Assembly: GCA_021776235.1 (NCBI GenBank)
Contig: JAJFGG010000159.1
Span: 1 to 45,826 of the forward strand
Direction of reading: 5' to 3'
Source: Alphaproteobacteria bacterium
GTDB lineage: Bacteria > Pseudomonadota > Alphaproteobacteria > GCA-2731375
DNA: 45,826 nt
The notes under the pieces are model-generated. The model was given only the letters and a program-made list of their open reading frames with translations, made no database searches and had not been told where the DNA came from. How positions within the stretch are numbered: the first letter of the stretch is position 1; every line of letters starts with the position of its first letter. A program made the position numbers and the translations under genes. Below, piece by piece: positions 27,496-41,875 of this stretch.

Positions 27496-28899
27496 CTATT
27501 CGTCGGATTGGTTACTGACCGGCTCCAGATAATCGAATTGCAATTGCAAGGATCTTTCCACGACGCCAATCCGTCTGCGGCGCGCCGACCAGAAATACTC
27601 CTCTCCCTGGCTACCGCGGGCGAAACGTTTCAGGCGCTGCACCGTGATCCCAGTGCGCGGGATGGCGTCTTCGTCGAGACGCCAAGACTCCCGGACTACT
27701 TGGCTTTGGTATTGAGGTTTGGCGAGTGAAGCCGTCTCCACCGAACGCGCGCGTCTTAAATAGGTGTCGCCATCCGCAAGTGAATCCGGATTGATCCGGA
27801 TCGGCATATAGGGCACATGCCGTGCGGACAGGCGCGACTTGAGTTTGTAGTGCGGCGCGCCCTTCAAGCTGTCCGCCAGATCATCATCGCTTTCAGGTAC
27901 CGCGTCGGGAATGGCTTCTTCGGCGCGATAGCGGCCCTGTCCATTGCTGTCGGTGACATAGTTTTCGATCGCCCAGGTAAAGTTCGCCAGTTCATCGCGC
28001 ATAAAATCAACTTCCTCGCAGATCGCGCCCTGCAGAGGTTCATTGGCGACTTCGGGCAGGAACAATACATCGCCGCCGATCCTGACGGTGGATTTTTCCG
28101 TGGCGGCCAGGTTGAATAACTGGAAGCTATCGGGATTGGTGCTCCATTGGCGGAACATGGGTTGGATTTCGGTGCCGATGTCAAAACTGTCGATGGCCGT
28201 CAGGTTTTTGATCCGCCGAAGGCAGCCGGTTTGTTGCTCCAGCGGGAAGACGAACCAATTGTTGACATCGGCATAGACAAACTCGACCAACAGGGTCGAG
28301 AGAACATTGGGTTCAGGGTCTATGCCCGAATCTAAAAAGACGTCTCCGTCCTCAAAGCGCCACCAACGGGGGTGGGGCATGCCCTTGAAATAAAGGCTTT
28401 GCGGTATGATCTTGCGGCTCTGTTCTTGCTTGTCGGCGTTGCGGGGGCTCTTGCGCCCGATGTCGAAACTGAACCAATCCAATCCGTTGCCGTCATAATC
28501 CTTGGCTTCGAGACGCCACCCTTGGGACGATCCGGCGGTTCCCGTGCGGATTTCGAACGAATAATCCAGGCTTTCACTGTTCCAGGCATCCGACAGTCCG
28601 TCGGCATCTTCCTTCTCGACCAGGGATTCCATGGGCCGGCCGGAAGCCAGTGGATGTTCCTGGCCCTCGATCAAGCAGCGGGTAATGGGCTCTTCTTCCC
28701 ACTCCACGTGAACCGCGCCGACCCGTCCGCCATTCTCCGCTTCGAACTCGCCGCTTAGCCATTGCAAAGACAAAAACCACAGGGGATCGTGAACCTGGGC
28801 AGCCAATCCCTGGTCGATGTGAGCCGTGCCATTGTTGGGCTGGAGATCCTGACCCTTCAGATAGGCTTGGGAAATGGATCCCGGAAACACCGTCGGCAT
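27496..28899 (-). CDS. Cassette protein A (467 aa, uncharacterised)
   Basis: Last gene of a four-gene operon. No signal peptide or membrane helix. The N-terminus reads MPTVFPGSISQAYLKG, then QVHDPLWFLSLQWLSGEFEA (about 34-53), a Trp-rich motif. I recall such a motif from large uncharacterised proteins of other bacteria (forms like DPLWLLARQWQfGEF). The middle has GMPHPRWWRFEDGDVF (about 172-187) and VYADVNNWFVFPLEQQ (about 207-222). The C-terminus is basic (YFWSARRRRIGVVERSLQLQFDYLEPV). The ATG starts 3 bases after the stop of protein B, so the two are coupled. No enzymatic motif found. Confidence 0.8.
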   Translation of the reverse strand: MPTVFPGSISQAYLKGQDLQPNNGTAHIDQGLAAQVHDPLWFLSLQWLSGEFEAENGGRVGAVHVEWEEEPITRCLIEGQEHPLASGRPMESLVEKEDADGLSDAWNSESLDYSFEIRTGTAGSSQGWRLEAKDYDGNGLDWFSFDIGRKSPRNADKQEQSRKIIPQSLYFKGMPHPRWWRFEDGDVFLDSGIDPEPNVLSTLLVEFVYADVNNWFVFPLEQQTGCLRRIKNLTAIDSFDIGTEIQPMFRQWSTNPDSFQLFNLAATEKSTVRIGGDVLFLPEVANEPLQGAICEEVDFMRDELANFTWAIENYVTDSNGQGRYRAEEAIPDAVPESDDDLADSLKGAPHYKLKSRLSARHVPYMPIRINPDSLADGDTYLRRARSVETASLAKPQYQSQVVRESWRLDEDAIPRTGITVQRLKRFARGSQGEEYFWSARRRRIGVVERSLQLQFDYLEPVSNQSDE

Positions 28900-28902
28900 G
28901 GT

Positions 28903-31900
28903 CTACCCCTTGTTGATCAATGTTTCGGACACTGTGTGGACGGAAAGCGAAGGACGGCCGGCCCGAACTCTGGCGGTTCTGAATACGCTGAAGGTGTTTT
29001 TCCCCGTCGGTACCCGCCTGTCATGGCTATTGCCCTGTTTCTTGGCGTCGACGGAATTGAAACTCGAGGGCAACAATTGGCCGGCCTCGGTCGGCAGGGC
29101 CCGAACCTGCATGAGACGGATGGCTTCAATCACCACATCAGCGGCACGGCGTTCGGTCCAGGTCGTTTTGCCATCGGTATCGGCGAGGCCCAGCAACAGG
29201 ACATTGGGCGCCTCGTTCTGTGGCGCATTATAATTGACGGCAAGGCCGGTGATCTGTTTGTCGGACGGTTGTTGCTCCGACCATTCATCAACCACAAGGC
29301 CGCAATAAGTGGCTTGCCGTCGCATCGCGGCGCGTGACCGCAATCTGGAGATAAAGACACCGTCGTGGTGCGATAAAGGGTACAAATTCTGGTCCGTGGG
29401 GTCGATCTGCGGAATACCGGTCACCTCCGGTCCGGTCAGCCATGTGCTGTATCTGGCCAAACGCTCCGCCGCGTTCAGACAATGTCCCAGGATCGGGCGC
29501 AGGTCCGTCCATCCGTCGAGGACATTCGACAGCTCAACGGCATCCGGTTGCACCTCGGGGGTGGTCGCGCTGATGCGCGCAAAGGGTGGATAGACTTTCA
29601 TGCCCTCGCCATCGACGCTGTTTTGCAAGGCGGCAACCAGTTCGCGGATCGCCGCCTCGATCATCTCCTCATCTTCGAGATCGGCAAATTCCTGTCCCGC
29701 GGCAGCGGCAAGGGCGTTCGATTTTCCGGTCAGGGATTGCGCCAGCTGTTGCCAATGTTCCCTTAAAATCTCCCAGCCCTGGAGTAGTTCCGTAGTGGTG
29801 TAGGGCTGCAGGGCCTGGGGAAGCCCGTAACCCGAAACCGCGGTCAGGACATCGTCCCAGGCATTCCGGCTCGTTTCCAGAGCCGTCAGCCGGGCCTGGC
29901 GGATGGCGGGGGTCGCCGTCGCATTGTCGAGGGCATGATGGGCCTGAAACACCACGGTTTCCAATTGTTCGAGCTGGTTTTTGAGGCCCAACCGAAGCAA
30001 TTGCAGTTCTTCGTTTTGCCGGATTGCCCGGGCCCGCAGCGCGGCATGGGCAACTTCCATGGCGGCTTCATAGGCGGCAGCGTCCAGTTTGTGTTTCGGC
30101 AGGGCGGCATTGTTCATATCGGCCGGGGCAAGCGGTCTGGCCTGGCCAATGGTTTTGACGAGACCGGATATCATTCCGACAAGGGAATTGACGCTCATCC
30201 TGCCGGCATCGAAATCGAAAGTGAGGGGCTGAGTTTGGTTAATATGAGCGTTCAGGTCATAGGCAGGCAGGGGGCCCAATGCCGTCGTCATGGCCTCGTC
30301 CTGGCGCCACTTTTTTAGGACCCAGTTGCGGCCGCGGCCGATAACCTCGTTCTTGCCGCCAATCAGAAAGTCGAGCGGCGTCATGCCGAGATCACGGGCA
30401 AGCGAAAGGCTCCCTTGAAAAATTCGTCCTTCGCCCGCCGCCCCAGAACCGTTGACCGTGAATTGCAGGCTGGCTCTGCCGAAGTTGGGCAAGGCATCCC
30501 GGGCAAGCGCGCCAAGCGCCGGTTCGACGATACTTCTGGGCGTGCCGCCGCTGGCCGCGGCTGGGTCGAGCAAAACCGTCACGCGATGAGTAGACGCCTG
30601 TCCCTCACCCACGGTGCGGATAAAATCGCACCGGGTTGGCACCGATCCGCCGGACAGCACCTGCTGCCAGGCATTGGCGGCGGTGACGTTTCCTGCCGCC
30701 ATTTGGTGTACGGCCTCGGCCATCACCAGGTCACTGACGCAATCCAGATCCTCATCGAGGGCCTTTCTTAATAGGACCAAGGTCGCAGCAAAAGCGTTTC
30801 TCATGGCCGCCGGAAGGGCCGCATTGGCGCTGTCGTCAAGCAATGCACTGCCGTCGATCAAGGATAATTCGCTGGACGCGTCACTGTCGGCCGTTTGCAA
30901 CTTGATCGGATAGGCCAACCGCAGGTCATATTTCATCCCGCTGTTGCCGCTTTCCTTGAGCCAGCGTTCGGCGACGTATCCCAGTACCTCTCGCAGCGTC
31001 AGTCCCTGGCGCAGGGAATCCAACAATACGCGGGCCCGCCGGGATCGGGTCGAGTTCAAATTGATGGCAAAGGCGGAGTCCTGGCCAAATCGCAAATGCG
31101 CCGAGCGCATCAGTCCGGCACTGACGGCCTGGGGGACCGATGGCGCCTGCATATAGCCGTCGTCCCGGTTCTTTGTCTTGGGCTGCAATTGGCCAAGAAA
31201 GCCGTAATAGCCGCAGCGCAAGCCGTCGTATTTCCGGTCCCGCTGTTTGACGAGGCGATAATAGGCCAGGCCGGTCGCCCAGGCATCGGCGCGATAATGC
31301 AACAGGTCGAGAATTTCCATCATCAGGGTTTCCAGTTGCGCCACCCCGTTGTCACGTCCGGCGATCGCCTTGAGACGGCGCAGCGCGGCGTTCACGTGAT
31401 CGGGCATGCTGTTGCCCGAAAGAGGCCGCCGCACCCGCCCTCCGGCCGACGTATCCCGCCGCCGGACGCTGTCCGTTATGGTTCGGCGCGTCAGGCTCCG
31501 CGGCGAGATTGACCCGCCCAGTGCCAACCGGGCGGCACCCGGCCGGGTTGCCGATACCGTTGAATCTGACCGTGTGCTGTCATAGTAACCCAGACTTAAA
31601 CGGATCAGGCGGTACAGAAGCGGATAAGCCCTTGTTTTCGCAGTTGGGTCCGGCATTCGTGCGGCCGGGGTCCTGAGAAATCGGTTCAGATATACCGCTG
31701 GCTTGAATCTCGAATGGTAGACATAGGGGCAGCCCAGTACATTATCGTCGTCTGCCTCGGCGCCGTCGGGTACATGGCTGGTTACATCCAGCCTGGTTGA
31801 AACGGCACTGAGTTTGAGAATAGCTTCCAGTTTTTCGAATGTGGCGCCGTCATCGGGTTCGATGACAGGGTGACGCACCGATGATTTGGTCCCCGACGCC

Positions 31901-33501
31901 ACGGATTGGCCGGAGGTGAGTTTTATGTATTCAAAGATCTTCCGGTCGCTGTCGCTTGCATCGGCGGGGGGCGCCATATTTTCCAGCGGCGACAGCGGCA
32001 TCACACCATAGGCCGACTGGCCGAGCCGCATCGGCGCCAGGGCGCCCCGCGCGGAAATATAGGCGGCGAAGTAATCCGTCAGTTGCCCCACATCGAATTG
32101 ATCCCGAAACAGTTCCTGCACGATGGGATGGGAGGTGAAGGCACTTTCCAGCAGCGCCGGCAGCAGGACCACTGCCATCGCTTTTGCATCTTCGCTGTCA
32201 CCGTTATCGGCGCCGGGAAGCTGATAAAGCAATTTCGCATCCAGCCCCAGGGTCATGGCGAGAAGGTCGGCGGCGTTTTCCGGATCCTTGCTGTCACGGC
32301 GCTCGGCGTAGCTCAGGTTTTGTATGGAGGCTTTGCTCGCCTTGGGCCGGCTTTGATAGCCCGAGGCGCTGCCGTCGATGTTATTGGTCGATGTCCCGAT
32401 ACGTAGAAAAGCGGCGTTACCGTTGGCGGCGGCATCGCGCAAATAATCTTCCACCTGTTTGGCGCTATCGCCGGAACGCAGTCCAATGGCAACCAGCCAA
32501 TCCGCGTCCAAGGCCAATTGTACCCGACCGGGATCAGTGATTTTTACGCCCATGCCGTTTGCCACTGCGTTGGCAAAACTGGACAACCACCCGGACTTCT
32601 CGGCGCTGACAGCGTCGGGATTGTATTTCACGCCAGGGCGAAGAGTTTTTCCCAATGCAATGCGCTGAACCCTTCCCGCCGTTACCGCGAACAGGGACAC
32701 CCGCCGCGGCAGGGCGAGGATTTTGCCGTAGTTCTTATGCCACGCGTCTTGATGAATGACGCCCTGTTGGCGCAGCAAATGCACGCCACGATATAATCCC
32801 ACATCCGCGGCCAGGGATTGCCAAGCCTCGAGAACGGCATCGTTTTCGACATCATACCAAGGGCTTTGCCCAATCGCGCTGTTGAAAGCCTGCAGGGCAA
32901 GTGCTTCGGTTCCCTTGGTGGCTTCATCATCTTGCGGTTCCACCGCGTCGATATCGGCAATGCCATCAAAGGTGAAGACGTCATCGGGATACCAGCGGAA
33001 CCAAATTTCCCGGCGTTTTCGGGTTGTCCGGGTCGACGGCAATTTCAAGGGCGATATTTTCAGACTCGAACTGGATTTGACGATGCTGGCGGTGGCGCCG
33101 GTGCGGCCAGCAATAATGGTCCGGTTGCCGCGGGCGTTTTTGCGGGCGGCAATTTTTGCATCGACCGCCGCGGCACGGCTGCCGGCGGCGCGGACGCCCG
33201 ATCGCGTTCCCGGCCGAACCGCGGCAGGGCCGCTTGGACTGGCCAGCTTTAACGGCACGTCCGTGCTCAGACAACGGTATTCCAGGCGCAGCGGCAGCAG
33301 TAATAGCGGGTCCGCCGGCTCCTTCGCGGACTGGGCGCTGGCGCCCCGGCCACCGGCCAGGGTGCCGATGGTCGACCGGGTAATGTCAGGGGCCGCGGTG
33401 CGCCTGGTCGCGCTTGCCGCCGCCCCTCTGGTCGAGCCGGACCGCGGCGTTGCCGCTGTTGCAATTGACGGTCTCGTTGTCAGGGTTGGCCTTATTACCA
33501 T
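28903..33501 (-). CDS. Cassette protein B (giant 1532-aa uncharacterised protein)
   Basis: A single uninterrupted frame of 4.6 kb. Residues 1 to about 150 are low-complexity, Ala/Arg/Ser/Thr-rich and probably disordered, with LLLLPLRLEYRCL (about 68-80) inside. EIWFRWYPDDVFTFD (about 165-179) resembles, from memory, a YPDD motif seen in other giant uncharacterised proteins. The rest is mixed helix and strand, with a helical stretch near 1170-1290 (LRLGLKNQLEQLETVVFQAHHALDN and following). No signal peptide, membrane segment, protease or nuclease motif seen. GGGCAGGAG gives the ribosome site 10 bases after the stop of protein C. Function unknown. Confidence 0.82.
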   Translation of the reverse strand: MVIRPTLTTRPSIATAATPRSGSTRGAAASATRRTAAPDITRSTIGTLAGGRGASAQSAKEPADPLLLLPLRLEYRCLSTDVPLKLASPSGPAAVRPGTRSGVRAAGSRAAAVDAKIAARKNARGNRTIIAGRTGATASIVKSSSSLKISPLKLPSTRTTRKRREIWFRWYPDDVFTFDGIADIDAVEPQDDEATKGTEALALQAFNSAIGQSPWYDVENDAVLEAWQSLAADVGLYRGVHLLRQQGVIHQDAWHKNYGKILALPRRVSLFAVTAGRVQRIALGKTLRPGVKYNPDAVSAEKSGWLSSFANAVANGMGVKITDPGRVQLALDADWLVAIGLRSGDSAKQVEDYLRDAAANGNAAFLRIGTSTNNIDGSASGYQSRPKASKASIQNLSYAERRDSKDPENAADLLAMTLGLDAKLLYQLPGADNGDSEDAKAMAVVLLPALLESAFTSHPIVQELFRDQFDVGQLTDYFAAYISARGALAPMRLGQSAYGVMPLSPLENMAPPADASDSDRKIFEYIKLTSGQSVASGTKSSVRHPVIEPDDGATFEKLEAILKLSAVSTRLDVTSHVPDGAEADDDNVLGCPYVYHSRFKPAVYLNRFLRTPAARMPDPTAKTRAYPLLYRLIRLSLGYYDSTRSDSTVSATRPGAARLALGGSISPRSLTRRTITDSVRRRDTSAGGRVRRPLSGNSMPDHVNAALRRLKAIAGRDNGVAQLETLMMEILDLLHYRADAWATGLAYYRLVKQRDRKYDGLRCGYYGFLGQLQPKTKNRDDGYMQAPSVPQAVSAGLMRSAHLRFGQDSAFAINLNSTRSRRARVLLDSLRQGLTLREVLGYVAERWLKESGNSGMKYDLRLAYPIKLQTADSDASSELSLIDGSALLDDSANAALPAAMRNAFAATLVLLRKALDEDLDCVSDLVMAEAVHQMAAGNVTAANAWQQVLSGGSVPTRCDFIRTVGEGQASTHRVTVLLDPAAASGGTPRSIVEPALGALARDALPNFGRASLQFTVNGSGAAGEGRIFQGSLSLARDLGMTPLDFLIGGKNEVIGRGRNWVLKKWRQDEAMTTALGPLPAYDLNAHINQTQPLTFDFDAGRMSVNSLVGMISGLVKTIGQARPLAPADMNNAALPKHKLDAAAYEAAMEVAHAALRARAIRQNEELQLLRLGLKNQLEQLETVVFQAHHALDNATATPAIRQARLTALETSRNAWDDVLTAVSGYGLPQALQPYTTTELLQGWEILREHWQQLAQSLTGKSNALAAAAGQEFADLEDEEMIEAAIRELVAALQNSVDGEGMKVYPPFARISATTPEVQPDAVELSNVLDGWTDLRPILGHCLNAAERLARYSTWLTGPEVTGIPQIDPTDQNLYPLSHHDGVFISRLRSRAAMRRQATYCGLVVDEWSEQQPSDKQITGLAVNYNAPQNEAPNVLLLGLADTDGKTTWTERRAADVVIEAIRLMQVRALPTEAGQLLPSSFNSVDAKKQGNSHDRRVPTGKNTFSVFRTARVRAGRPSLSVHTVSETLINKG

Positions 33502-33511
33502 GCTCCTGCCC

Positions 33512-36298
33512 TCACAGCGGCAACAGTTGATCCGCCGGAATTACGGCGCAGACGGGCTTTTGCATGGTTGCCTTGGCAAGGCTGGCGGAATGCCGGTTTG
33601 CGCCCCATAGGTCTTCACCGTCCATCGGCGCGGGGATCGTATCCGCGAAATCGACATAGCCGGATGCAGTCGGCTCCACATGGGACCAGGAGATGTCATC
33701 CCAACTATCGAGGCCCGCAGCCGAATTCAGTGGCGCCTTGTTCAGGCGCTTGTAGCTGAATTCGAAGCTTTCGTTTCTTATGCTCGAGCGCGCCAGGCCT
33801 TTGACCGGAAACGGCGCCTTGACCAGTTGAAAATTCACCTTGCTCCGGCGCGCCGAATAGGACCCGATATCGAGACCGAAACGAGGCCTGCCCATGGGTT
33901 CGAATATCAAAAAATAATACTGATCGAGAAATTCCTTCAGGCTGTCCAGGGACACGTCGAAGCCGTAATAGGCGATATCGTCGCCGATCAGTCCGCTAAA
34001 GGCTTGCGGCAGGAAAATGCCGGGGTCTTTCTGTTGCTCTTCGCCGGGCATCTCCCAGTCATTTCCCGACGCCACCGTTTGCCGGTTTAAGACCATCGAA
34101 AACCCGGGATACCGCCTGACCAGGTCTCCGCGAATGATCAACACCAAGGCGGGATCATCGGTTCGCCGATAGTGCCGGCCAAGACGTCCGGTCCAGCGGT
34201 GAATGTCGCTGATGTCATCTTTGCTTTTGTCATTCTCCGGGTGGCCCTGGTCCCAAAAGCGGGGCAGAACGGTCGCGCGCATGTCACCCGGGAACTCCCG
34301 CCAGCGCAGTTCCCGGTTCATCTCATGATTTGCGCCCAACATGACACTTTCGATGAAAGCCTTGTTTTCCTCCGCCAAAGCGACCGAATTGTAGGGGATA
34401 TCTCCGGCATTCGGTAATATGGCGTCCGGGTTCTCCTTACACAATATATCGGCCAGGGGATCCGGGATCCTCGGCCCACGCAGAATATCGTCGAGAGAAT
34501 TCTTCTCCGAAGCGGGCAGCATTTTGAACAAATGCTGTCCCTTGAGCCGGGCCAGCTTGGAAAGTTTATCGCCAATCTCGGCGACGTATTCGCCTGCGTC
34601 GAGTTTGCCAACCTCCAGGGCTTTCCCGCCAACCGGCCGCTTGTTCGGAACCAGGCTATCATCCCCGACAACCCGGTCAGCGGCAAGAATGTTTGCGAAC
34701 AACGTGACGCGGGAAGCGGCGAAGGCGTCCGATTTCCTGCCGCGGCTGGCAAAACCATAATTCCATGCTTTTACCCCCGGCGTACCGGGCAGGCGCAGAA
34801 GTTTACCGGTCACTTTTCCAACCCCGCTTTGCTTGGCGGCCCGCTTCGAGGCCAGGCGCCGCATCGAGCGCACCATGTAGCCACCGGGCATGCCCTTGTT
34901 TTCCATGTCTCCGAGGATACTTTTGCCACCGACCTGCAATCCACCCAACAAAGACTGGCTCAACACCAGGGCGACGTCGTTGGGCAATTTCCGGAAATGC
35001 TTGTTCATCATGCGGTTCGACAGCGTATCGGCCAGTTTCAGCCGACCGCGCAAACGGTTCGCACGGATGATATCACCTACCTGGGCCCAGCTTTTCTTCA
35101 TGAAAAGCTCCTGGCGCCCCTGCACCAGCCGGGTTCCGTCGCCGGCGCCAAAGCGGAACCGGAGGTCCAGGTTGACGGCGTTCAACCACGCCTTGGCGCC
35201 CCTGTGCCGGTTTTCAATTTTGTCGGCTTTGACAAAACGCCAGCCATATGGCGGCAGGGCGACAAGGGGATCCTCCTTGTCCGGGCCGTCCGACTCCGGG
35301 AGGATTTGGCTCCCAATTACATTGTTCAAGGATTGCGCCAGATTATCGGTCAGTTGCTGTTGCTGGATAATTCTGGGTACCGGCCTGTCGCCGGGCTGGC
35401 GCAAGGCGCCTTCGGCCAGGAATGACTCGCCAGGTTCGTCGTAGCCATCATAATAGCCGGGCCGTCCGCTGAAGATGACCGTCTTGCCGCCGACAGCCAC
35501 CGCGTCTTCATCAGGCAGCGAGATCCGGCGGACCAGATGTTCAAAATCCTCGGTGGCCCGCGTCGTGATCCGGGACCGCCAGTAGATGGGAAGGACCAGA
35601 TCGGAGCCGCCGTCGTCCTGCCAGGCCAGCTTGTCCCAGGGCGACACATTTGCCTCTTCGCCGAGTCCACGCAACCGGCCGGCCTCGAAGGTCGGAACCA
35701 GGAAGAGAAAATAAACCGAACTTTCCTCCAGTTTTCGCGGGCACAGCAAACGCGAATGATGGCTATCGGGCCGGGTTTGCAGAAGCGTGTCCAGCGGCGT
35801 ATCCCCCACCCGTTTGATATGAGCATGGGCAAAAGCCCAGCTTTGCTCAAGTTCGGGCAGGCTGGCGGCTGGCGTCGAAACGACAATCCGCGGCAGGGGC
35901 CCGGCGCCCCGCGCGGCGAAATCAAACTCATCCGCTTTCAGCGCAATCAGGACCAGCCACGGTTTCACCCGGCTGCCGTTGCCTGTGTCCAGACTCAGGC
36001 GCCAGGGAAAATCGACATCAAAAAACTCCACATAGGGAAAATAGTTGGGCTCGACACCGACGCTGCTTTGCGTCGGTTCGACCCGGGCAATGGCATCGGG
36101 GACCAGGCTGATGACATCGCCGGCGCCATAAATTTCGTTCTCCAGCCTGATCGGCAAACGGGCATCGGAAATCCTGGCGCCATTACCTTCCACGCCGATG
36201 TCAATGGGGATCACCCGGCGCTGGACTCCGGCCTCGCCTGGCGCGCGGCTGCCGGCGACAAGGGCGCTTTTGACTTGCGGCAAAAACGTGTAACTCAT
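33512..36298 (-). CDS. Cassette protein C (928 aa, uncharacterised)
   Basis: Start taken at ATG 36296-36298 because AAGGAAAGGG precedes it; a longer frame has no ribosome site. The N-terminus MSYTFLPQVKSALVAG is followed by VEPNYFPYVEFFDVDFPWRL (about 80-99), VKPWLVLIALKADEF (about 109-123), LPELEQSWAFAHAHI (about 139-153), FLVPTFEAGRLRGLG and LPIYWRSRI. This string of motifs is one I recall from uncharacterised bacterial proteins, not from any enzyme with known function. No signal or membrane segment. Close spacing to both neighbours shows that it is part of the operon. Confidence 0.82.
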   Translation of the reverse strand: MSYTFLPQVKSALVAGSRAPGEAGVQRRVIPIDIGVEGNGARISDARLPIRLENEIYGAGDVISLVPDAIARVEPTQSSVGVEPNYFPYVEFFDVDFPWRLSLDTGNGSRVKPWLVLIALKADEFDFAARGAGPLPRIVVSTPAASLPELEQSWAFAHAHIKRVGDTPLDTLLQTRPDSHHSRLLCPRKLEESSVYFLFLVPTFEAGRLRGLGEEANVSPWDKLAWQDDGGSDLVLPIYWRSRITTRATEDFEHLVRRISLPDEDAVAVGGKTVIFSGRPGYYDGYDEPGESFLAEGALRQPGDRPVPRIIQQQQLTDNLAQSLNNVIGSQILPESDGPDKEDPLVALPPYGWRFVKADKIENRHRGAKAWLNAVNLDLRFRFGAGDGTRLVQGRQELFMKKSWAQVGDIIRANRLRGRLKLADTLSNRMMNKHFRKLPNDVALVLSQSLLGGLQVGGKSILGDMENKGMPGGYMVRSMRRLASKRAAKQSGVGKVTGKLLRLPGTPGVKAWNYGFASRGRKSDAFAASRVTLFANILAADRVVGDDSLVPNKRPVGGKALEVGKLDAGEYVAEIGDKLSKLARLKGQHLFKMLPASEKNSLDDILRGPRIPDPLADILCKENPDAILPNAGDIPYNSVALAEENKAFIESVMLGANHEMNRELRWREFPGDMRATVLPRFWDQGHPENDKSKDDISDIHRWTGRLGRHYRRTDDPALVLIIRGDLVRRYPGFSMVLNRQTVASGNDWEMPGEEQQKDPGIFLPQAFSGLIGDDIAYYGFDVSLDSLKEFLDQYYFLIFEPMGRPRFGLDIGSYSARRSKVNFQLVKAPFPVKGLARSSIRNESFEFSYKRLNKAPLNSAAGLDSWDDISWSHVEPTASGYVDFADTIPAPMDGEDLWGANRHSASLAKATMQKPVCAVIPADQLLPL

Positions 36299-36344
36299 GA
36301 ATTCCCTTTCCTTGTGCCGTCCTGCGCGAAATGGTTCATGGCTT

Positions 36345-39300
36345 TTATGCGGCCACGTCCTGGTAAAAATAGCTGGGCAACACGGTATTCGTTTCCCCCG
36401 GTCCCCGTTTGAGTCCCGCAAGCCGTTGATCGAATTTGGCCTCGACGCCGGCGGCGACGGGCCGCCGGGCCACGGCCGCGACATCCGCCGCCGCTGATTT
36501 CTTCACCATCCCGCCGATCTGGTTGCCCATCACGGTCGGCGCATCCTGAACCAGATCGGAGGCAATATCCGCGACGGAACCGACAAAGTGCGTGTTCAAG
36601 ATCTCAACCGGGTCGGTGAGTTCAGGGTGCAGCCAGGCCGCGCCTGGTTCACGGGCCACTGCGGCGAAATTCCTGTTCATCCAGCGGTCCGCGACACCAG
36701 GCCCCAGGACAGCGAGGGAGATGGACGCCGTTTCCTCGTCATCATCGCCCAGGGGGATGATTTCATACTCGAAGTCCCCGGACACCGCGTCGTCGGCATC
36801 ATATTTCCAATTGCCGCCGCCATGGATTTCAACACCGCCCTTGTAGGAACGGGTCACTTCGCCGCGTAGTTTCTCATCCTCGCTGAGATCGAAATACTGC
36901 CCGCGCACGAACTCCAACTCTAAATCCGTTGCCTCCAGGGCCGCGCCGCCATGGTCTTCGAAGATCAAATCGAAGGTATCGTAGGGGCCGGTGATCTGTG
37001 CTTCGCCAAGTTTTTGCAGGGCGGTATTCAACGGCAAGGCCCGCTGCACGAACCGCAGACCGCTGACCGGATCGATCGGCGTTGCCTCGTCCGCCCCGCT
37101 GGCCGCGAAACTGACCCCGGTTTGCAGATAGGCGGTGTCGACCGCTTCCATTTCCGCCGTCCGGCCAAGGGTATCCAGCAACATGGTCAGCGGGTTGGCC
37201 GTTAACGTGTCTTCCGACTTCTTGCCGCCCCAGCGGTGGGTGATGCCGATTTTAACATCTAAGCCGAAGACCGTGATCCAGACCTTGCCGCTGATATAAT
37301 AGGAATTGGGGCCGGTCAGCTTCAAATCCGCATTTATGCCGCATTCCACCGAACCGTCGATAAGAAGCTCCAAGCCGGCGTACAGATGCACGTCAAACCG
37401 GAAGGGGTTGAAATATATCAGGGCATCAAAGCCGGCCCAGCCCTTGGCCGCGACCTGCCCCAGAAGGAATATCTCCGGCCCCTTGGCATAAATGGTCAGG
37501 TTCGCGCCCATTTGGAACGAATTGGCGGTCACCGCCTGATAGGCCGTGATCGTAACCTGCGGATTGTTGGAACCGAAATTGATGCTCATCCGCTGCAGGG
37601 ACAGAACATTGGCGGGGGCATCGAAGGCGGGGTGGAAACCGCCGAAAGAAACGACGTTGTAGATATCGGGGCCCCAGCCGGTACGCATCGCCATTTCGCC
37701 GCTGACCGGCCAGGTCAGAATGGTTGAATGGGTCAAAGCGGCGTCAAAGGATACCCGGCCATAGGTAAAGTCGATAACCCCGAGAAAATCCAGATTAAGC
37801 GCAATGATGGCCTTGTTCGGGTTGGGCAGGTTTAACCCGACCGCACCGAGGATAACCAAGCGCTTTTCTTCGCCGAGTTCGAGAATGACGGCGATTTTTC
37901 CTTCGATCAGCGGCACGCCCGTGCCCCAGGCCAGTTTGGCGGCCGGGCCGAACAGGTACTGTCCCTGGCGGGCGGGAAATACCGTGTCCAGGGTATTCAG
38001 GATCAGGCTGGCGTCTTCAATCGGCGCAGGGGGAAACAGAATGGTGTTGAGATTGCCGGCATAGAGCGCGTCGCGCAGGGCTTCCACGTCCGCCGTCCGG
38101 TGGACGCCGATGATGCCGCCCAGCCCGGTTAGAATAAAGCCATAGCCAAGCTGGACCTCGAACTCGCCGAAGATGGAGACGAGAAAGGAAAACCCCTCGG
38201 CGCCATCGGGCATTTTCGTGGTCAGAATGCCGAACGCGCTGAGCCCGAAGGTCTGGAACTTCAGCGACAGGGCGCCGCGGTAGCCATCGTCGGTTTTGAA
38301 CAGGGCGCCGCCGCCGGTGATGATGTCCGAGGTCAGGGCCGCGGCATAGCCGGTGGGCAGTCGAAGGCCCACATCGATATCATAATTGCCCAGCAGGCCG
38401 CTTTCCGCTTCCTCCAGCGAAAGATTGATGCCAAGGCCCTCGGCGCCAAGGAACAGCGGCCCAATGGTCAGATCCCCATTGACCCAGGCGGACAGGGTCG
38501 TGGCATCGGCAAAACCAACTTCGATGCCAAGGCGGTGGATGCGCAGGACATCGGCGAAATTCAATTGCAGCGGAATTTCGACCCCCAGGGTGCCGCCGCT
38601 TTCAAAATAAATGCCTTTGCCCAGGCGCCAGCCAAGCAACAGGTCGCCGGCACTGACGACGACGTCATCGGACAACACCGAACTCAATAGCCCGTCCTCG
38701 CCGGGACTGATGATCAGGGACAGCCCCTCGGCGCCGCCGGCGATGTAAAAATCCCTGTCGTCCGGCGACGTGCCGATGCTGCCGCCAAGGGACAGCAACA
38801 GCGCCTCGGCCTGCAGGCGGGTTGCATCCGCCGCGCCAAACAGGATGATGCTGTCCTCGCCGTCCGCCGCGGCACGCTGCAATTCCAGATCGACGCTGAC
38901 CTCGCCGGTGATCCCGTTATGGACGGCCAGGCCGTTTGGAAAAAGCTTGAAGCCGAATCCACCTTCCAGGCCGCCCGCGCTTGTTACGTTGAGCGTTGTG
39001 CTGTCGCCCACAAGGAACGTGCTGTCGATGGCGCCCTGCAGGTACGGGATCAGGGCCAGGCCCTTTTGACCAGCGGTCTCGGCCGGCAAACCCATGACGC
39101 CAACCGAACCCCGTGGCGCATTGTCGGTCAAACTCGGCAGATAGCGCCCCAGACGAAAGACCGGCAGTTCATACAGGGTCGGGGGTGGATCGGGAAAATC
39201 CGAATCCGATGGCGGGTCCGGCAAATCCAGATAGGACGCCATCATATTGCGCGGCATGGGCCGGGCGAAGGAAATCAGGCCAAGATGGTCGAAAACATCC

Positions 39301-39905
39301 CCCAGCCGGCTTAACAGGGTCGCCGAATCAAAATCTTCGCCGCCCCATTTATAGTAAGTCCGCGCCCATTGCCCCGAGTCCCTGAACAAATCGCCGAGCG
39401 CGGCCCAGTTGAAGCGGTAAATCAGGTAGCTTCTGCCGCGGTCGGCGGCGGCATGAGGCTCCAACTCGATCACCGCCAGCAAATGCAGCAGCTTCAGGAG
39501 GCCCGGACTGCGGCGGCGCAAATACCCATAGAGCATGTTGTCCAGCAGATCCTGGAACAGTTGCCCGGGCGCGCCCGTGGCTTCGGTGACGACGGCGCTC
39601 AGATGCCCTGGCACCTGCGCAAGGGCGGCGGTCATTTCCGCCGTGCGGTTCATGAACGACACCACGTCTGACAGTTCCGGCTCGCCTGCATCGAACAGGG
39701 TGCCGGCGTCTTCGATCAAGGTATTGATGTCGCCGCCCAGCCCGGAAATGCCGTTGGGCATGGCAGCGCCCGGCGCCAGTTCGAAGCCAAGCTCATTTAC
39801 CAGATCTTCGAACGCGTTTAGCGAGCTGAAAGCATTGGTCAAGGGATAGAGGAAGGAAAGAGCTTCTCTCAGAACGAATTGATAGCTGCTGGACACGAAA
39901 TCCAT
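36345..39905 (-). CDS. Cassette protein D (about 1186 aa, DUF6603-like, beta-rich)
   Basis: First gene of the operon. ATG 39903-39905 is preferred; an in-frame GTG lies two codons upstream and neither has a strong ribosome site. The middle holds GLGGIIGVHRTADVEALRD (about 620-640) and NLNTILFPPAPIEDASL, features I associate with DUF6603 proteins. From about 250 to 920 it is mostly short beta-strands separated by Gly-rich turns (LEGGFGFKLFPNGLAVHNG; GYRGALSLKFQTFGLSAFG), suggesting a large repetitive beta structure. The C-terminal 50 residues are Ala/Lys-rich. Function of the family is not established as far as I know. Confidence 0.82.
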   Translation of the reverse strand: MDFVSSSYQFVLREALSFLYPLTNAFSSLNAFEDLVNELGFELAPGAAMPNGISGLGGDINTLIEDAGTLFDAGEPELSDVVSFMNRTAEMTAALAQVPGHLSAVVTEATGAPGQLFQDLLDNMLYGYLRRRSPGLLKLLHLLAVIELEPHAAADRGRSYLIYRFNWAALGDLFRDSGQWARTYYKWGGEDFDSATLLSRLGDVFDHLGLISFARPMPRNMMASYLDLPDPPSDSDFPDPPPTLYELPVFRLGRYLPSLTDNAPRGSVGVMGLPAETAGQKGLALIPYLQGAIDSTFLVGDSTTLNVTSAGGLEGGFGFKLFPNGLAVHNGITGEVSVDLELQRAAADGEDSIILFGAADATRLQAEALLLSLGGSIGTSPDDRDFYIAGGAEGLSLIISPGEDGLLSSVLSDDVVVSAGDLLLGWRLGKGIYFESGGTLGVEIPLQLNFADVLRIHRLGIEVGFADATTLSAWVNGDLTIGPLFLGAEGLGINLSLEEAESGLLGNYDIDVGLRLPTGYAAALTSDIITGGGALFKTDDGYRGALSLKFQTFGLSAFGILTTKMPDGAEGFSFLVSIFGEFEVQLGYGFILTGLGGIIGVHRTADVEALRDALYAGNLNTILFPPAPIEDASLILNTLDTVFPARQGQYLFGPAAKLAWGTGVPLIEGKIAVILELGEEKRLVILGAVGLNLPNPNKAIIALNLDFLGVIDFTYGRVSFDAALTHSTILTWPVSGEMAMRTGWGPDIYNVVSFGGFHPAFDAPANVLSLQRMSINFGSNNPQVTITAYQAVTANSFQMGANLTIYAKGPEIFLLGQVAAKGWAGFDALIYFNPFRFDVHLYAGLELLIDGSVECGINADLKLTGPNSYYISGKVWITVFGLDVKIGITHRWGGKKSEDTLTANPLTMLLDTLGRTAEMEAVDTAYLQTGVSFAASGADEATPIDPVSGLRFVQRALPLNTALQKLGEAQITGPYDTFDLIFEDHGGAALEATDLELEFVRGQYFDLSEDEKLRGEVTRSYKGGVEIHGGGNWKYDADDAVSGDFEYEIIPLGDDDEETASISLAVLGPGVADRWMNRNFAAVAREPGAAWLHPELTDPVEILNTHFVGSVADIASDLVQDAPTVMGNQIGGMVKKSAAADVAAVARRPVAAGVEAKFDQRLAGLKRGPGETNTVLPSYFYQDVAA

Positions 39906-39911
39906 CCCCAC

Positions 39912-40117
39912 GGAGAAGGCAGTTCAACTACAAATAATGTTTTTATTTCGTCTATTTCAACTTTGACAGCATCCGCATTTCGATGCAACTATCATAAAGT
40001 GTGATTTTGATTTTTCTCTTATAAGTTATCGCTCGCTGCCATTTTGCGCAGACGGGTCAATAAGAGCGCACAGCCGGTCCGATTCCCAAGACCAGGGACA
40101 GAGCGTAGACGGGACAC
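39912..40117. promoter_or_regulatory. AT-rich divergent promoter region of the cassette
   Basis: 206 bases, clearly more AT-rich than the surrounding genes, between protein D and the quinoprotein oxidase. On the plus strand TTGACA (39963-39968) is followed by the inverted repeat GCATC...GATGC (39969-39986) and TATCAT (39990-39995). That spacing is 21 bases, longer than usual, so a bound activator may be needed. On the minus strand TTGAAA with a weak CATTAT -10 could serve protein D. One regulator could set both directions. Confidence 0.45.
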
Positions 40118-41875
40118 ATGGCGCGAACGAAAGAATATCACATTCATCCGGCGGTGGGCGTGGCCCGCATGGGAAACAGCACCAAAGGCGTTCAGCTCGC
40201 ACCCGAGGTGCCTTGGGGCGCGGCGCTTGGTGAGTATTATGACGGCGGCATCTCGCATCTGGCCGAAACCGATGTCGCACAAAAAGCCGCGCAATTTCGC
40301 GGCAGCGAAGGCGGCATCCGGCGCAGCGCCGCCCGTTTTCGCATTTTCGAGTATTCCTATGAAGAGACTTTTAACCTGGGGGATTTTGACTTTTCGGATT
40401 ATGGCTACAGTAAATCCAAAATTGAAGTGAAGGAGGTCACCACCGCGGAGTTCGAGATCGAATGGGAGCTGACCCTTTGCAACAAAAAGAATAATGACCT
40501 TGACCCTAACAGCGTGAGCAAAACCTTGACCGCGACGGGAAGCGCCCCGACCGGAACGGAAATCTTCAAACAGGGCGATCGCCTGATGTTGGGCGAAGCA
40601 CTGGTCGAGGCGGACGGTCAATTGGTTCTAATCGGCAGCCGCGGCAATGTGCAAACCTTTGACGCGGGCAACGGGAACCCAAAAAAATTGGCCTTGGATG
40701 CGAATGGCGCCCCCACGAATGACAACATGTCCGGGAGCGTTTCCGAAGAGTCCATGTGGACGCCCTTCGTCGAAGATGATGCGGCGGACGGTCCTGTGAA
40801 GGCGACAATCAAACTCAAGGGCGGCACGGAAGAATTTACCGCGGCGGCCTGGTCGGTGGTTGCCCTGCCCCGTTTCGGCGGCGACATCATACCCATTGTG
40901 TCATTGTACGATCTGGCCCTTAGCCATGCGCTCGACGGGGTGCCGCCGGCAGCTGGCTCGGGTCTTCATGACACCTCGTTTACCCGTCACATCTATCCCA
41001 TTTTCAAATCCCTGGCGCAGATGGCCGAAGTGCACGGCGAACAGAAAAAAACCGGGGCCGGTTCGGCGATGCGGAAGCATGGACGGACGGGAAGCTTTTA
41101 TTATTTCGCCAATGCGCTCATGACCACGTTGAGCGACAACACCCTGCCGCAAACAACCCGGCAACCCTACTTCGACCGTCTGGCGCTTCCCGATACGCAA
41201 CTTTCATCGGACACCTACCCGAATTACACACAGATTCCCGGTGGAGTCCCGAACGCGGAACTGCCCACTCCGTCCACGCAAGACATGCCGTACTTGCGGG
41301 CGCTGCCGCTCATGCGGCTGCAATACAAGCATATGGAGAACTGGCTTCAGGGAAACTTCCTCAACGATTGGACCGGGCACCCAGGCCCAGGCGGCGGTCT
41401 CGGAACCGTTGCCGTCAAGGATCAACCCCAACTCATGGACCAGGCCCACATGCAGCATGTCTGCGGCGGCTCCTTTTATCCCGGGATCGAGGTAGGCCGC
41501 GCGGCGTGGGATCCCAACCTTTGGACCGCGATTACCGGCCTTACCGACCACCCCCTGGTTCGCCTGAGCCCTGGATGGACGACCGGCAATATGGCTGCCG
41601 GCGACTTGACCGGGAGTCTGGCGGTGCCCTGGCAGGTGGATTTTGTCGACTGTGAAGACAGTTTTTGGCCGGCCTCCCGGCCGGGGATCGCCTCGGCCGA
41701 CGGGACCAATTTTTACCGATGGATGGAATTCCCTAGCGGCGGCGGCGTCAAATACCTAAGCAGAGCGGATTTTGTGCGTGACTGGCGCAAGATGGGAACC
41801 ATGGTTTGGGACAACGCGAGCCATGCAGCGAGAGAGGTGGAGAGGACCTTGGGGCCGGGCAGTCCGGCGCCTTGA
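40118..41875 (+). CDS. LodA/GoxA-family cysteine tryptophylquinone oxidase
   Basis: 585 residues. Family signatures: IHPAVGVARMGNS (about 8-20), IRRSAARFRIFEYSYEE (about 68-84), MQHVCGGSFYPGIE (about 445-458) and AVPWQVDFVDCEDSFWPASRP (about 502-522). In LodA the cofactor forms from Cys516 and Trp581; the corresponding residues here are most likely Cys449 and Trp505. Such enzymes oxidise amino acids (for example L-lysine at the epsilon-amine, or glycine) and give H2O2, with antimicrobial effect in some hosts. The usual partner LodB flavoprotein, needed to make the quinone, is not in this window. No signal peptide. Divergent from the four-gene cassette. Confidence 0.9.
   Translation: MARTKEYHIHPAVGVARMGNSTKGVQLAPEVPWGAALGEYYDGGISHLAETDVAQKAAQFRGSEGGIRRSAARFRIFEYSYEETFNLGDFDFSDYGYSKSKIEVKEVTTAEFEIEWELTLCNKKNNDLDPNSVSKTLTATGSAPTGTEIFKQGDRLMLGEALVEADGQLVLIGSRGNVQTFDAGNGNPKKLALDANGAPTNDNMSGSVSEESMWTPFVEDDAADGPVKATIKLKGGTEEFTAAAWSVVALPRFGGDIIPIVSLYDLALSHALDGVPPAAGSGLHDTSFTRHIYPIFKSLAQMAEVHGEQKKTGAGSAMRKHGRTGSFYYFANALMTTLSDNTLPQTTRQPYFDRLALPDTQLSSDTYPNYTQIPGGVPNAELPTPSTQDMPYLRALPLMRLQYKHMENWLQGNFLNDWTGHPGPGGGLGTVAVKDQPQLMDQAHMQHVCGGSFYPGIEVGRAAWDPNLWTAITGLTDHPLVRLSPGWTTGNMAAGDLTGSLAVPWQVDFVDCEDSFWPASRPGIASADGTNFYRWMEFPSGGGVKYLSRADFVRDWRKMGTMVWDNASHAAREVERTLGPGSPAP

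What the first reader, a model, noticed from the sequence alone, without database searches (positions are those of the whole stretch)
27496..39905. Four-gene operon of very large uncharacterised proteins (candidate undescribed system)
12.4 kb of co-directional genes with gaps of 46, 10 and 3 bases encode proteins of about 1186, 928, 1532 and 467 residues. None has a signal peptide, membrane helix or known enzyme motif, yet each has sharp Trp/Pro-rich motifs (FLPQVKSAL, EPNYFPYVEF, WYPDD, DPLWFLSLQW) that I recall recurring in giant unknown proteins elsewhere. Tight spacing suggests fixed stoichiometry, as for parts of one large complex. The DUF6603-like member is beta-rich and could be a scaffold.
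Basis: partly seen in the sequence, partly recalled or inferred. Interest (0 to 1): 0.85.

Follow-up and report, generated by a model that had tools for sequence, protein, structure and literature searches.

The report
Four-gene module of giant proteins
Four very large proteins for which I found no described function are encoded side by side, in the same order, in scattered bacteria and salt-loving archaea, often beside a gene that looks like a pore-former or an enzyme, so they may be a shared carrier for weapons or a scaffold for surface enzymes.

Summary
Four co-directional genes (window 39905 to 27496, minus strand; gaps 46, 10, 3) encode 1186, 928, 1532 and 467 residues. Only the first has a known domain (DUF6603). 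The same four genes, in the same order and strand, recur in all 16 multi-gene loci I examined (Alphaproteobacteria, Betaproteobacteria, Actinomycetota, Gemmatimonadota, haloarchaea). In the 11 loci with usable genes their distance matrices agree (r 0.87-0.96). The distribution is patchy (13 of 72,556 plasmids; 0 of 397 other sampled genomes of the phylum), so the module travels as a unit. Genes 2-4 have no significant match in Pfam, NCBIfam, PHROGs, PADLOC or PDB sequences, apart from one unfollowed G4 hit at E 0.0056; no paper in the searched library names DUF6603.

New here: in 11 of 16 loci an adjacent gene encodes a predicted enzyme or pore-former, and its type changes. Four haloarchaeal loci carry a weak, consistent match to pore-forming T6SS effectors; others are PhoD-like, trypsin-like, subtilase or, as in the window, LodA-like. 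No background rate was measured. My best reading is a four-protein carrier or scaffold for interchangeable effectors (0.4). That the module is real is near certain; its job is inferred.

The parts
36345..39905 (-). G1, 1186 aa, DUF6603 protein: helical-looking N-terminal part (about residues 1-240), then beta-rich
   Evidence: PF20248 E 3e-100, 336 bits against cut-off 27; periodicity; relatives in first position in all 16 loci, cut by the contig end in L019
33512..36298 (-). G2, 928 aa, EPNYFP-type protein, no known family
   Evidence: no Pfam, NCBIfam, PHROGs, PADLOC or PDB match; 10-member alignment A2
28903..33501 (-). G3, 1532 aa, YPDD-type protein, no known family
   Evidence: no significant family match (among ten members one carries a decapeptide-repeat region); 10-member alignment A3
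27496..28899 (-). G4, 467 aa, DPLW-type protein, no known family; three haloarchaeal relatives are annotated with a lamin-tail domain
   Evidence: 13-member alignment A1; annotation of relatives
40118..41875 (+). LodA-like protein, 585 aa, divergent from G1 (212 bp apart); candidate locus-specific partner
   Evidence: LodA_N 88 bits and LodA_C 64 bits, both over cut-off; a LodA-like gene sits in the same divergent place in Mesorhizobium
39906..40117 (.). intergenic region between G1 and the LodA-like gene, probably holding both promoters
   Evidence: position only; promoters not tested

Best explanation
G1-G4 are the constant part of a mobile, multi-protein particle or scaffold, apparently made without signal peptides. 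It carries or displays a locus-specific partner protein encoded next to it: a pore-former, protease, phosphatase-like enzyme or amine-oxidase-like protein. The likely use is against competing cells. Shown: a four-gene unit conserved in order, strand and co-variation; patchy spread across two domains of life; an adjacent predicted enzyme or pore-former of changing type in 11 of 16 loci; no T6SS sheath gene in the two genomes and four plasmids tested. Inferred: that the four proteins bind each other, that the neighbour is their cargo, how the assembly leaves the cell (lysis or an unknown route), and that the target is another cell. In the window the partner would be the LodA-like protein; whether it is a working oxidase is open.
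For: (a) Order and strand G1>G2>G3>G4 kept in 16 of 16 multi-gene loci (L014 and L023 counted as one Halobellus locus). 25 of 30 junctions measured in 10 of the 16 loci are -4 to +12 bp, taking longest-ORF or annotated starts. (b) Distance matrices of the four proteins correlate at r 0.87-0.96 over 11 of the 16 loci, 0 of 5000 label permutations as high for each of six pairs. (c) In haloarchaea the gene directly upstream of G1, touching or overlapping it, matches NF041559 (BTH_I2691 T6SS effector family) at E 2.7e-10, 4.8e-7 and 2.5e-5: three distinct proteins, four loci, three organisms. All match the C-terminal stretch 705-853 of the 858-position model, and the hydrophobic segment of each lies in its matched part. 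Their joint profile has colicin A's pore-forming domain as top PDB hit, E 0.017. (d) Other partners: PhoD-like (L009, 40.5 bits against cut-off 27, partial domain; L007 homologous to it), trypsin-like (L012, 29.9 against 27.6; L011 homologous to it), subtilase downstream (L010, 43.6 against 21.8). (e) tblastn with one BTH-like and one trypsin-like partner finds, besides the query's own record, one other plasmid each of 72,556, and that one bears the module. (f) The Nocardia subtilase shares a 95-residue stretch (59% identity) with a phospholipase-D-like gene near the Streptomyces NBC_01724 module, and no other plasmid matched that stretch. (g) No VipB (PF05943) in G000, the Mesorhizobium genome or four haloarchaeal plasmids.
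Against: No background rate was measured: enzymes are common neighbours anywhere, and my choice of 'partner' was after the fact. 5 of 16 loci show no recognised effector-like neighbour: WD40 (L005), pentapeptide repeats (L006), an unknown 427-aa protein (L013), nothing within about 600 bp (L004), and L019, not judged. The NF041559 scores are far below that model's cut-off (39.5, 28.7 and 23.0 against 150 bits), and the colicin match is marginal. The search in (e) missed the Halobellus BTH-like protein, so its 'nowhere else' holds only at that sensitivity. PhoD-like relatives are not module-specific (4 of 20 records bear the module). The 828-aa divergent gene of L006 has no plasmid relative at all. 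No immunity gene was identified. The window and Mesorhizobium LodA-like proteins have no Cys at the cofactor column, so the window's partner may not be an active enzyme. Physical interaction and secretion were not tested.
Confidence: 0.4

Rival explanations
1. G1-G4 build a cell-surface or matrix scaffold (biofilm, coat or adhesive structure), and the neighbours are ordinary secreted or surface enzymes that work on it or in the same niche.
For: Some relatives carry annotations typical of outside-the-cell proteins: lamin-tail in G4 of three haloarchaea, BGTF surface domain in G3 of two, VCBS repeats in the S. longwoodensis G2. LodA-like proteins are tied to biofilm development and hydrogen peroxide in other bacteria (PMC4417212, passages read). 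CVNH- and LGFP-repeat genes lie downstream in R. lusitanum.
Against: In the simple hydropathy scan only one of 45 members (Paraburkholderia G3) stands out with a start that could be signal-like. Pore-former-like genes touching or overlapping G1 in haloarchaea are unexpected for a matrix operon.
Confidence: 0.25
2. G1-G4 do something unrelated (for example an intracellular or plasmid-maintenance job), and the enzymes and pore-formers are hitchhikers that gather on the same genomic islands and plasmids.
For: Islands and plasmids collect toxin, defence and mobile genes; transposases, recombinases or toxin-antitoxin genes lie near several module loci. The partner types are unrelated to each other, and no background rate was measured.
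Against: In 8 of 13 measured cases the neighbour lies -11 to +7 bases from G1 or G4, and two partner types were found only on module-bearing plasmids at the sensitivity used.
Confidence: 0.25
3. A degenerate or divergent contractile injection machine or phage tail whose parts are too diverged to recognise.
For: Large, apparently co-expressed proteins without clear signal peptides next to an effector-like gene; T6SS-effector-like partner.
Against: No significant PHROGs match for the four window genes or three Streptomyces ones (best 0.027, a family of unknown function), no meaningful PDB sequence match for the four profiles, no VipB sheath in six genomes or records, no motor domain found in the four.
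Confidence: 0.05

Closest known systems
DUF6603 (Pfam PF20248)
   Same: G1 is a clear member (336 bits against cut-off 27)
   Different: The Pfam entry is a family of unknown function; the library searched has no paper with 'DUF6603' or 'PF20248'. I found no description of its constant link to three further giant proteins.
T6SS effectors of the BTH_I2691 family (Tke5, Ptx2, Bte2)
   Same: Haloarchaeal upstream partners match the C-terminal part of the family model
   Different: Scores below the family cut-off, archaeal hosts, only that part matched, no T6SS sheath on those plasmids. The Tke5 paper does not use the word archaea and speaks of homologues across Pseudomonadota (PMC12909789, passages read).
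LodA/GoxA quinoprotein oxidases
   Same: LodA_N and LodA_C domains in the divergent gene of the window
   Different: 585 aa, 22-27% identity to the plasmid relatives that cover 78% or more of it, no LodB-like gene found on the window's contig, no Cys at the cofactor column
Polymorphic toxin systems (constant trafficking part, variable toxin)
   Same: Constant module plus changing effector-like part, scattered distribution
   Different: The variable part is a separate gene, not a C-terminal domain; no immunity gene identified; no known trafficking domain in G1-G4. Comparison from general knowledge; the review PMC3482391 was seen only in a search listing.

Membership tests
DUF6603 (PF20248) | Score above the curated cut-off | tested here: met
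   336.5 bits against 27, residues 453-1012, profile 6-501 of 502
Type VI secretion system | TssC/VipB sheath gene in the genome | tested here: not met
   PF05943: 0 of 6 genomes or records (G000, Mesorhizobium genome, four haloarchaeal plasmids); the control E. coli rang. The haloarchaeal chromosomes were not searched.
Phage tail or contractile injection system | Match of core proteins to phage structural families | tested here: not met
   PHROGs: nothing significant for the four window proteins and three Streptomyces relatives (G4 at 0.027 and G1 at 0.19, both families of unknown function)
Tc toxin complexes and other solved toxin complexes | Sequence match to solved structures | tested here: not met
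   Profiles A1-A4 against PDB sequences: no match to a toxin complex (best: A1 to an uncharacterised protein at 0.0056 over 132 residues, not followed up). Fold comparison was not possible.
BTH_I2691 effectors (for the haloarchaeal upstream gene) | Score above the curated cut-off | tested here: not met
   39.5, 28.7 and 23.0 bits against 150
BTH_I2691 effectors (for the haloarchaeal upstream gene) | Pore-forming activity | not testable with these tools
   marginal colicin A profile match only, E 0.017
LodA/GoxA family (window 40118-41875) | LodA_N and LodA_C domains | tested here: met
   88.2 against 26.3 and 63.7 against 25 bits; NCBIfam GoxA and LodA equivalogs not met (104 against 750, 73 against 600)
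LodA/GoxA family (window 40118-41875) | Cys and Trp of the CTQ cofactor | tested here: not met
   Trp column kept; at the Cys column the window has Val (Cys is the next residue) and Mesorhizobium Met, while two annotated plasmid relatives have Cys. Rests on one four-sequence alignment.
LodA/GoxA family (window 40118-41875) | Adjacent LodB-like flavoprotein | tested here: not met
   with the Mesorhizobium LodB-like protein as query, G000 gave one match, on contig C159 and not on the window's contig; in Mesorhizobium a FAD-binding protein is adjacent

The most novel reading that the evidence does not exclude
An undescribed, sheath-free delivery or packaging machine shared by bacteria and haloarchaea: four giant proteins form a particle that is loaded with a swappable neighbour-encoded effector (colicin-like pore-former, protease, phosphatase, oxidase), moved between lineages on plasmids and islands.
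Probability: 0.3. Interest if true: 0.92.

Novelty: categorically new. Interest (0 to 1): 0.72.

Why it matters
A module of four giant proteins kept in order across Archaea and Bacteria presumably does something specific, yet I found no described function, and three of its four families have no entry in the libraries searched. If it carries effectors, it would be a new route of antagonism that also works in haloarchaea, where, to my general knowledge, few such systems are described. Even if it is a surface scaffold, the changing neighbour gene makes the function testable: most loci name their own candidate partner.

Tried and rejected
Structure prediction: of my loci only those from the search for related loci were admitted, so the alignments had two rows. 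G4 gave pLDDT 28.6 and G1 29.2. No fold search was run on such models.

A phage origin: MT835531 ('Bacteriophage sp.', unverified) carries G2-G4 and an edge of G1, but two of its other ORFs are an nSTAND/BTAD protein and a resolvase, so I read it as bacterial. One IMG/VR contig holds only the first 68 codons of a G4-like gene. A viral scan with G2 found none.

LodA cofactor loss as a hallmark of module-linked LodA: weakened, because the second LodA of the window's own genome (L034 6533-9730, not beside a module) reads PTVGG where a plasmid relative reads PCVGG (by eye, since the five-way alignment failed).

An empty site in relatives: the flanking epimerase has close orthologues in G003 and G006 and the flanking luciferase-like gene in G001 and G002, but apart from that one gene I saw no clear synteny in the stretches taken, so no empty site could be shown.

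Internal repeats in G1: top self-match 10.6 against a shuffled maximum of 12.5, so none seen. Homology among G1-G4: three of six pairs compared (G2-G4, G2-G3, G3-G4), none found.
Full report
What is there. The window holds four co-directional genes on the minus strand, here called G1 to G4 in the order of transcription: G1 36345-39905, G2 33512-36298, G3 28903-33501, G4 27496-28899. Gaps are 46, 10 and 3 bases. G1 has one Pfam domain, DUF6603, at 336 bits; G2, G3 and G4 have no significant match in Pfam or NCBIfam. Scanned as whole alignments, G2 gives nothing significant and G3 gives a decapeptide-repeat region in one of ten members plus two weak single hits. PHROGs gives nothing significant (best 0.027) and PADLOC nothing. 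Profiles of the four families find no meaningful PDB sequence (the one G4 match, an uncharacterised protein at E 0.0056, was not followed up). The 13 other window ORFs that I scanned are metabolic, transport, membrane or sensor genes. Upstream, 212 bases away and divergent, lies a LodA-like gene (40118-41875).

The module elsewhere. tblastn against 72,556 plasmid records finds G4 in 14, G2 in 13 and G1 in 15. Thirteen records hold all three. Three hold one alone: Streptomyces anthocyanicus a G4, and two Embleya records a weak G1-like stretch. Queries from a Streptomyces europaeiscabiei member return the same 13 (G2) and 14 (G4) records. G3 was not searched this way. A whole-collection genome scan with short G4 peptides, which reaches only close relatives, finds one Mesorhizobium MAG. 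Searches of relatives are otherwise empty: 1 of 116, 1 of 398 sampled in the phylum and 1 of 15 in the order, the one being the window's own genome each time. The hosts of the 13 plasmids are Streptomyces (5, of which 3 are S. longwoodensis; I opened one of these 3), Nocardia, Gemmatirosa, Paraburkholderia, Rhizobium lusitanum and four haloarchaea. Other phyla could be sampled only through plasmid and phage records.

Order. With profiles of G1-G4 I marked the loci. Sixteen loci hold more than one gene: the window, Mesorhizobium, L003, L004, L005, L006, L007, L009, L010, L011, L012, L013, L022, L015, L023 with L014, and L019. All 16 keep G1>G2>G3>G4 on one strand. In L019 G1 runs off the contig; in L015 the record ends inside G3, so its G4 was not seen. 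L008 has G4 alone. In ten of the 16 loci I measured 30 junctions: 25 lie between -4 and +12 bases (using longest-ORF or annotated starts). In R. lusitanum G2 and G3 are each annotated as two frames that overlap by four bases, which looks like gene fission; in Halobellus several genes of both copies are split.

One evolutionary unit. Over 11 loci the pairwise distance matrices of the four proteins correlate at r 0.87 to 0.96, and 0 of 5000 label permutations reach the observed value in any of the six comparisons. Five loci were left out because genes were split, cut or of uncertain frame (R. lusitanum, both Halobellus, Gemmatirosa, L019). The pattern is not the species tree: Mesorhizobium and R. 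lusitanum, of one order, are 25% (G1) and 26% (G4) identical, no closer than R. lusitanum and the archaeon Halalkalicoccus (26 and 33%). The window's nearest relative is Mesorhizobium at 38-44%.

What the proteins look like. No member of the four alignments (45 rows) has a 19-residue segment with mean hydropathy of 2 or more; one N-terminus (Paraburkholderia G3, 12-residue mean 2.02) could be signal-like. G1 has a helical-looking first 240 residues and alternating hydrophobicity at about 240-600 and 716-943, as in beta strands. Structure prediction failed for lack of admitted relatives. Some relatives are annotated with outside-the-cell domains: lamin-tail in G4 of three haloarchaea, BGTF surface in G3 of two, VCBS in the S. 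longwoodensis G2.

The changing neighbour. The gene next to the module differs by locus. Halalkalicoccus, Natrinema (second copy) and both Halobellus copies have, touching or overlapping G1, a protein that matches NF041559, the BTH_I2691 family of T6SS effectors, at E 2.7e-10, 4.8e-7 and 2.5e-5. Three proteins were scanned; the second Halobellus copy carries the same protein accession. In Halobellus the gene is split into two overlapping frames and the match is in the second. All three match the same C-terminal stretch of the model, and the hydrophobic segment of each falls inside the matched part. Of 18 proteins scanned against NCBIfam at E up to 1, only these three showed a hit to that model; for the histidine kinase only the best 25 of 86 families were printed. 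A multi-pass sodium/proton antiporter was among those without a hit. The joint profile has colicin A's pore-forming domain as its best PDB hit, E 0.017. In Tke5, a member of this family, the helical region with the predicted membrane segments is sufficient for killing (PMC12909789, passages read). Salinigranum has a PhoD-like gene (partial domain match) overlapping G1, and a homologue of it with a peptidoglycan-binding domain lies upstream of the S. longwoodensis module. Paraburkholderia has trypsin-like genes upstream, and Gemmatirosa related ones (the Gemmatirosa ORF itself reached no Pfam cut-off). Nocardia has a subtilase gene overlapping the end of G4. The window and Mesorhizobium have a divergent LodA-like gene.

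Count and limits. That makes 11 of 16 loci with a predicted enzyme or pore-former adjacent. The other five are WD40 (L005), pentapeptide repeats (L006), an unknown protein (L013), nothing within about 600 bases (L004) and L019, not judged. I did not measure how often a random neighbour would count as such, and the choice of neighbour was after the fact. tblastn with the Halalkalicoccus pore-former-like protein finds only itself and Natrinema, and with the Paraburkholderia trypsin-like protein only itself and Gemmatirosa; all four records bear the module. The first search missed Halobellus, so it shows rarity only at that sensitivity. The PhoD-like protein is found elsewhere too: 4 of 20 records bear the module. 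The subtilase shares a 95-residue stretch only with a phospholipase-D-like protein near the Streptomyces NBC_01724 module; its protease domain matches other plasmids. The divergent 828-aa gene of S. europaeiscabiei has no relative on other plasmids.

The window's partner. The LodA-like protein has both LodA domains but is short and divergent. Published LodA-like proteins were all reported to have a Cys and a Trp for the cofactor, and nearly all a LodB gene nearby (PMC4417212, passages read). In a four-sequence alignment the window protein keeps the Trp but has Val at the Cys column with Cys one place later; the Mesorhizobium one has Met; two annotated plasmid relatives have Cys. A second LodA of the window's genome, with a LodB-like gene on the same contig, reads Thr there by eye, so this is not special to the module. 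No LodB-like gene was found on the window's contig. Activity is therefore open.

Reading. A constant four-protein part, a changing effector-like neighbour, scattered spread on plasmids and no clear secretion signal resemble the logic of effector carriers. No T6SS sheath gene was found in the window's genome, the Mesorhizobium genome or four haloarchaeal plasmids; the haloarchaeal chromosomes were not searched. I therefore favour a carrier or scaffold for interchangeable effectors at 0.4. A surface or matrix scaffold (0.25) and unrelated function with hitchhiking neighbours (0.25) remain open. What is settled is the module, not its job.

Literature. Searches of the held library for DUF6603 and for PF20248 return no paper. 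A combined search for T6SS effector, haloarchaea and pore-forming also returns none, and a search for LodA with operon, DUF and hypothetical-protein terms listed no paper whose title or abstract start points to this module (listing only). Most subscription journals and all bioRxiv preprints are missing from that library, so a description elsewhere is possible.

Noticed in passing
L034 3743-9730 (contig C159 of the window's genome): A second LodA-like gene (1065 aa) with a LodB-like gene and, by eye, a phosphatidylserine-decarboxylase-like gene; it reads PTVGG where a plasmid relative reads PCVGG, so the cofactor Cys may be missing although a LodB-like gene is present.
   Followed up: partly
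L033 30-14429 and L025 441-3283: Beyond the LodA-like gene of the Mesorhizobium module lie a 2409-aa repeat-rich protein, two proteins that look like membrane-fusion and M50-peptidase proteins (by eye), a SecA-like motor (Pfam) and a small HlyD-like protein (by eye): a possible export cluster.
   Followed up: partly
L019 (MT835531): A record deposited as 'Bacteriophage sp.' from human faeces carries module genes, an nSTAND/BTAD protein and a resolvase; it looks bacterial, not phage.
   Followed up: partly
L014, L015, L023 (Halobellus plasmid NZ_CP134947.1): Two copies of the module on one plasmid, both with split genes, each preceded by similar molybdopterin-oxidoreductase genes: probably a large duplication with decay.
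   Followed up: no
L004 14138-22026: G2 and G3 of Rhizobium lusitanum are each annotated as two genes overlapping by 4 bases, which may mark natural domain borders.
   Followed up: no
L037 10208-15733: Embleya: an 1841-aa ORF with a partial G1-like stretch (profile 632-858, E 3e-30) and no G2-G4 match in the 28-kb stretch; a DUF6603 relative in another setting.
   Followed up: partly
L017: A 4-kb IMG/VR contig with phage-like replication genes (by eye) ends in the first 68 codons of a G4-like gene.
   Followed up: no
L005 27122-29068 and L010 6433-10143: A phospholipase-D-like and a subtilase protein near two modules share a 95-residue stretch (59% identity) that Pfam did not name; by eye it resembles a peptidoglycan-binding domain.
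   Followed up: partly
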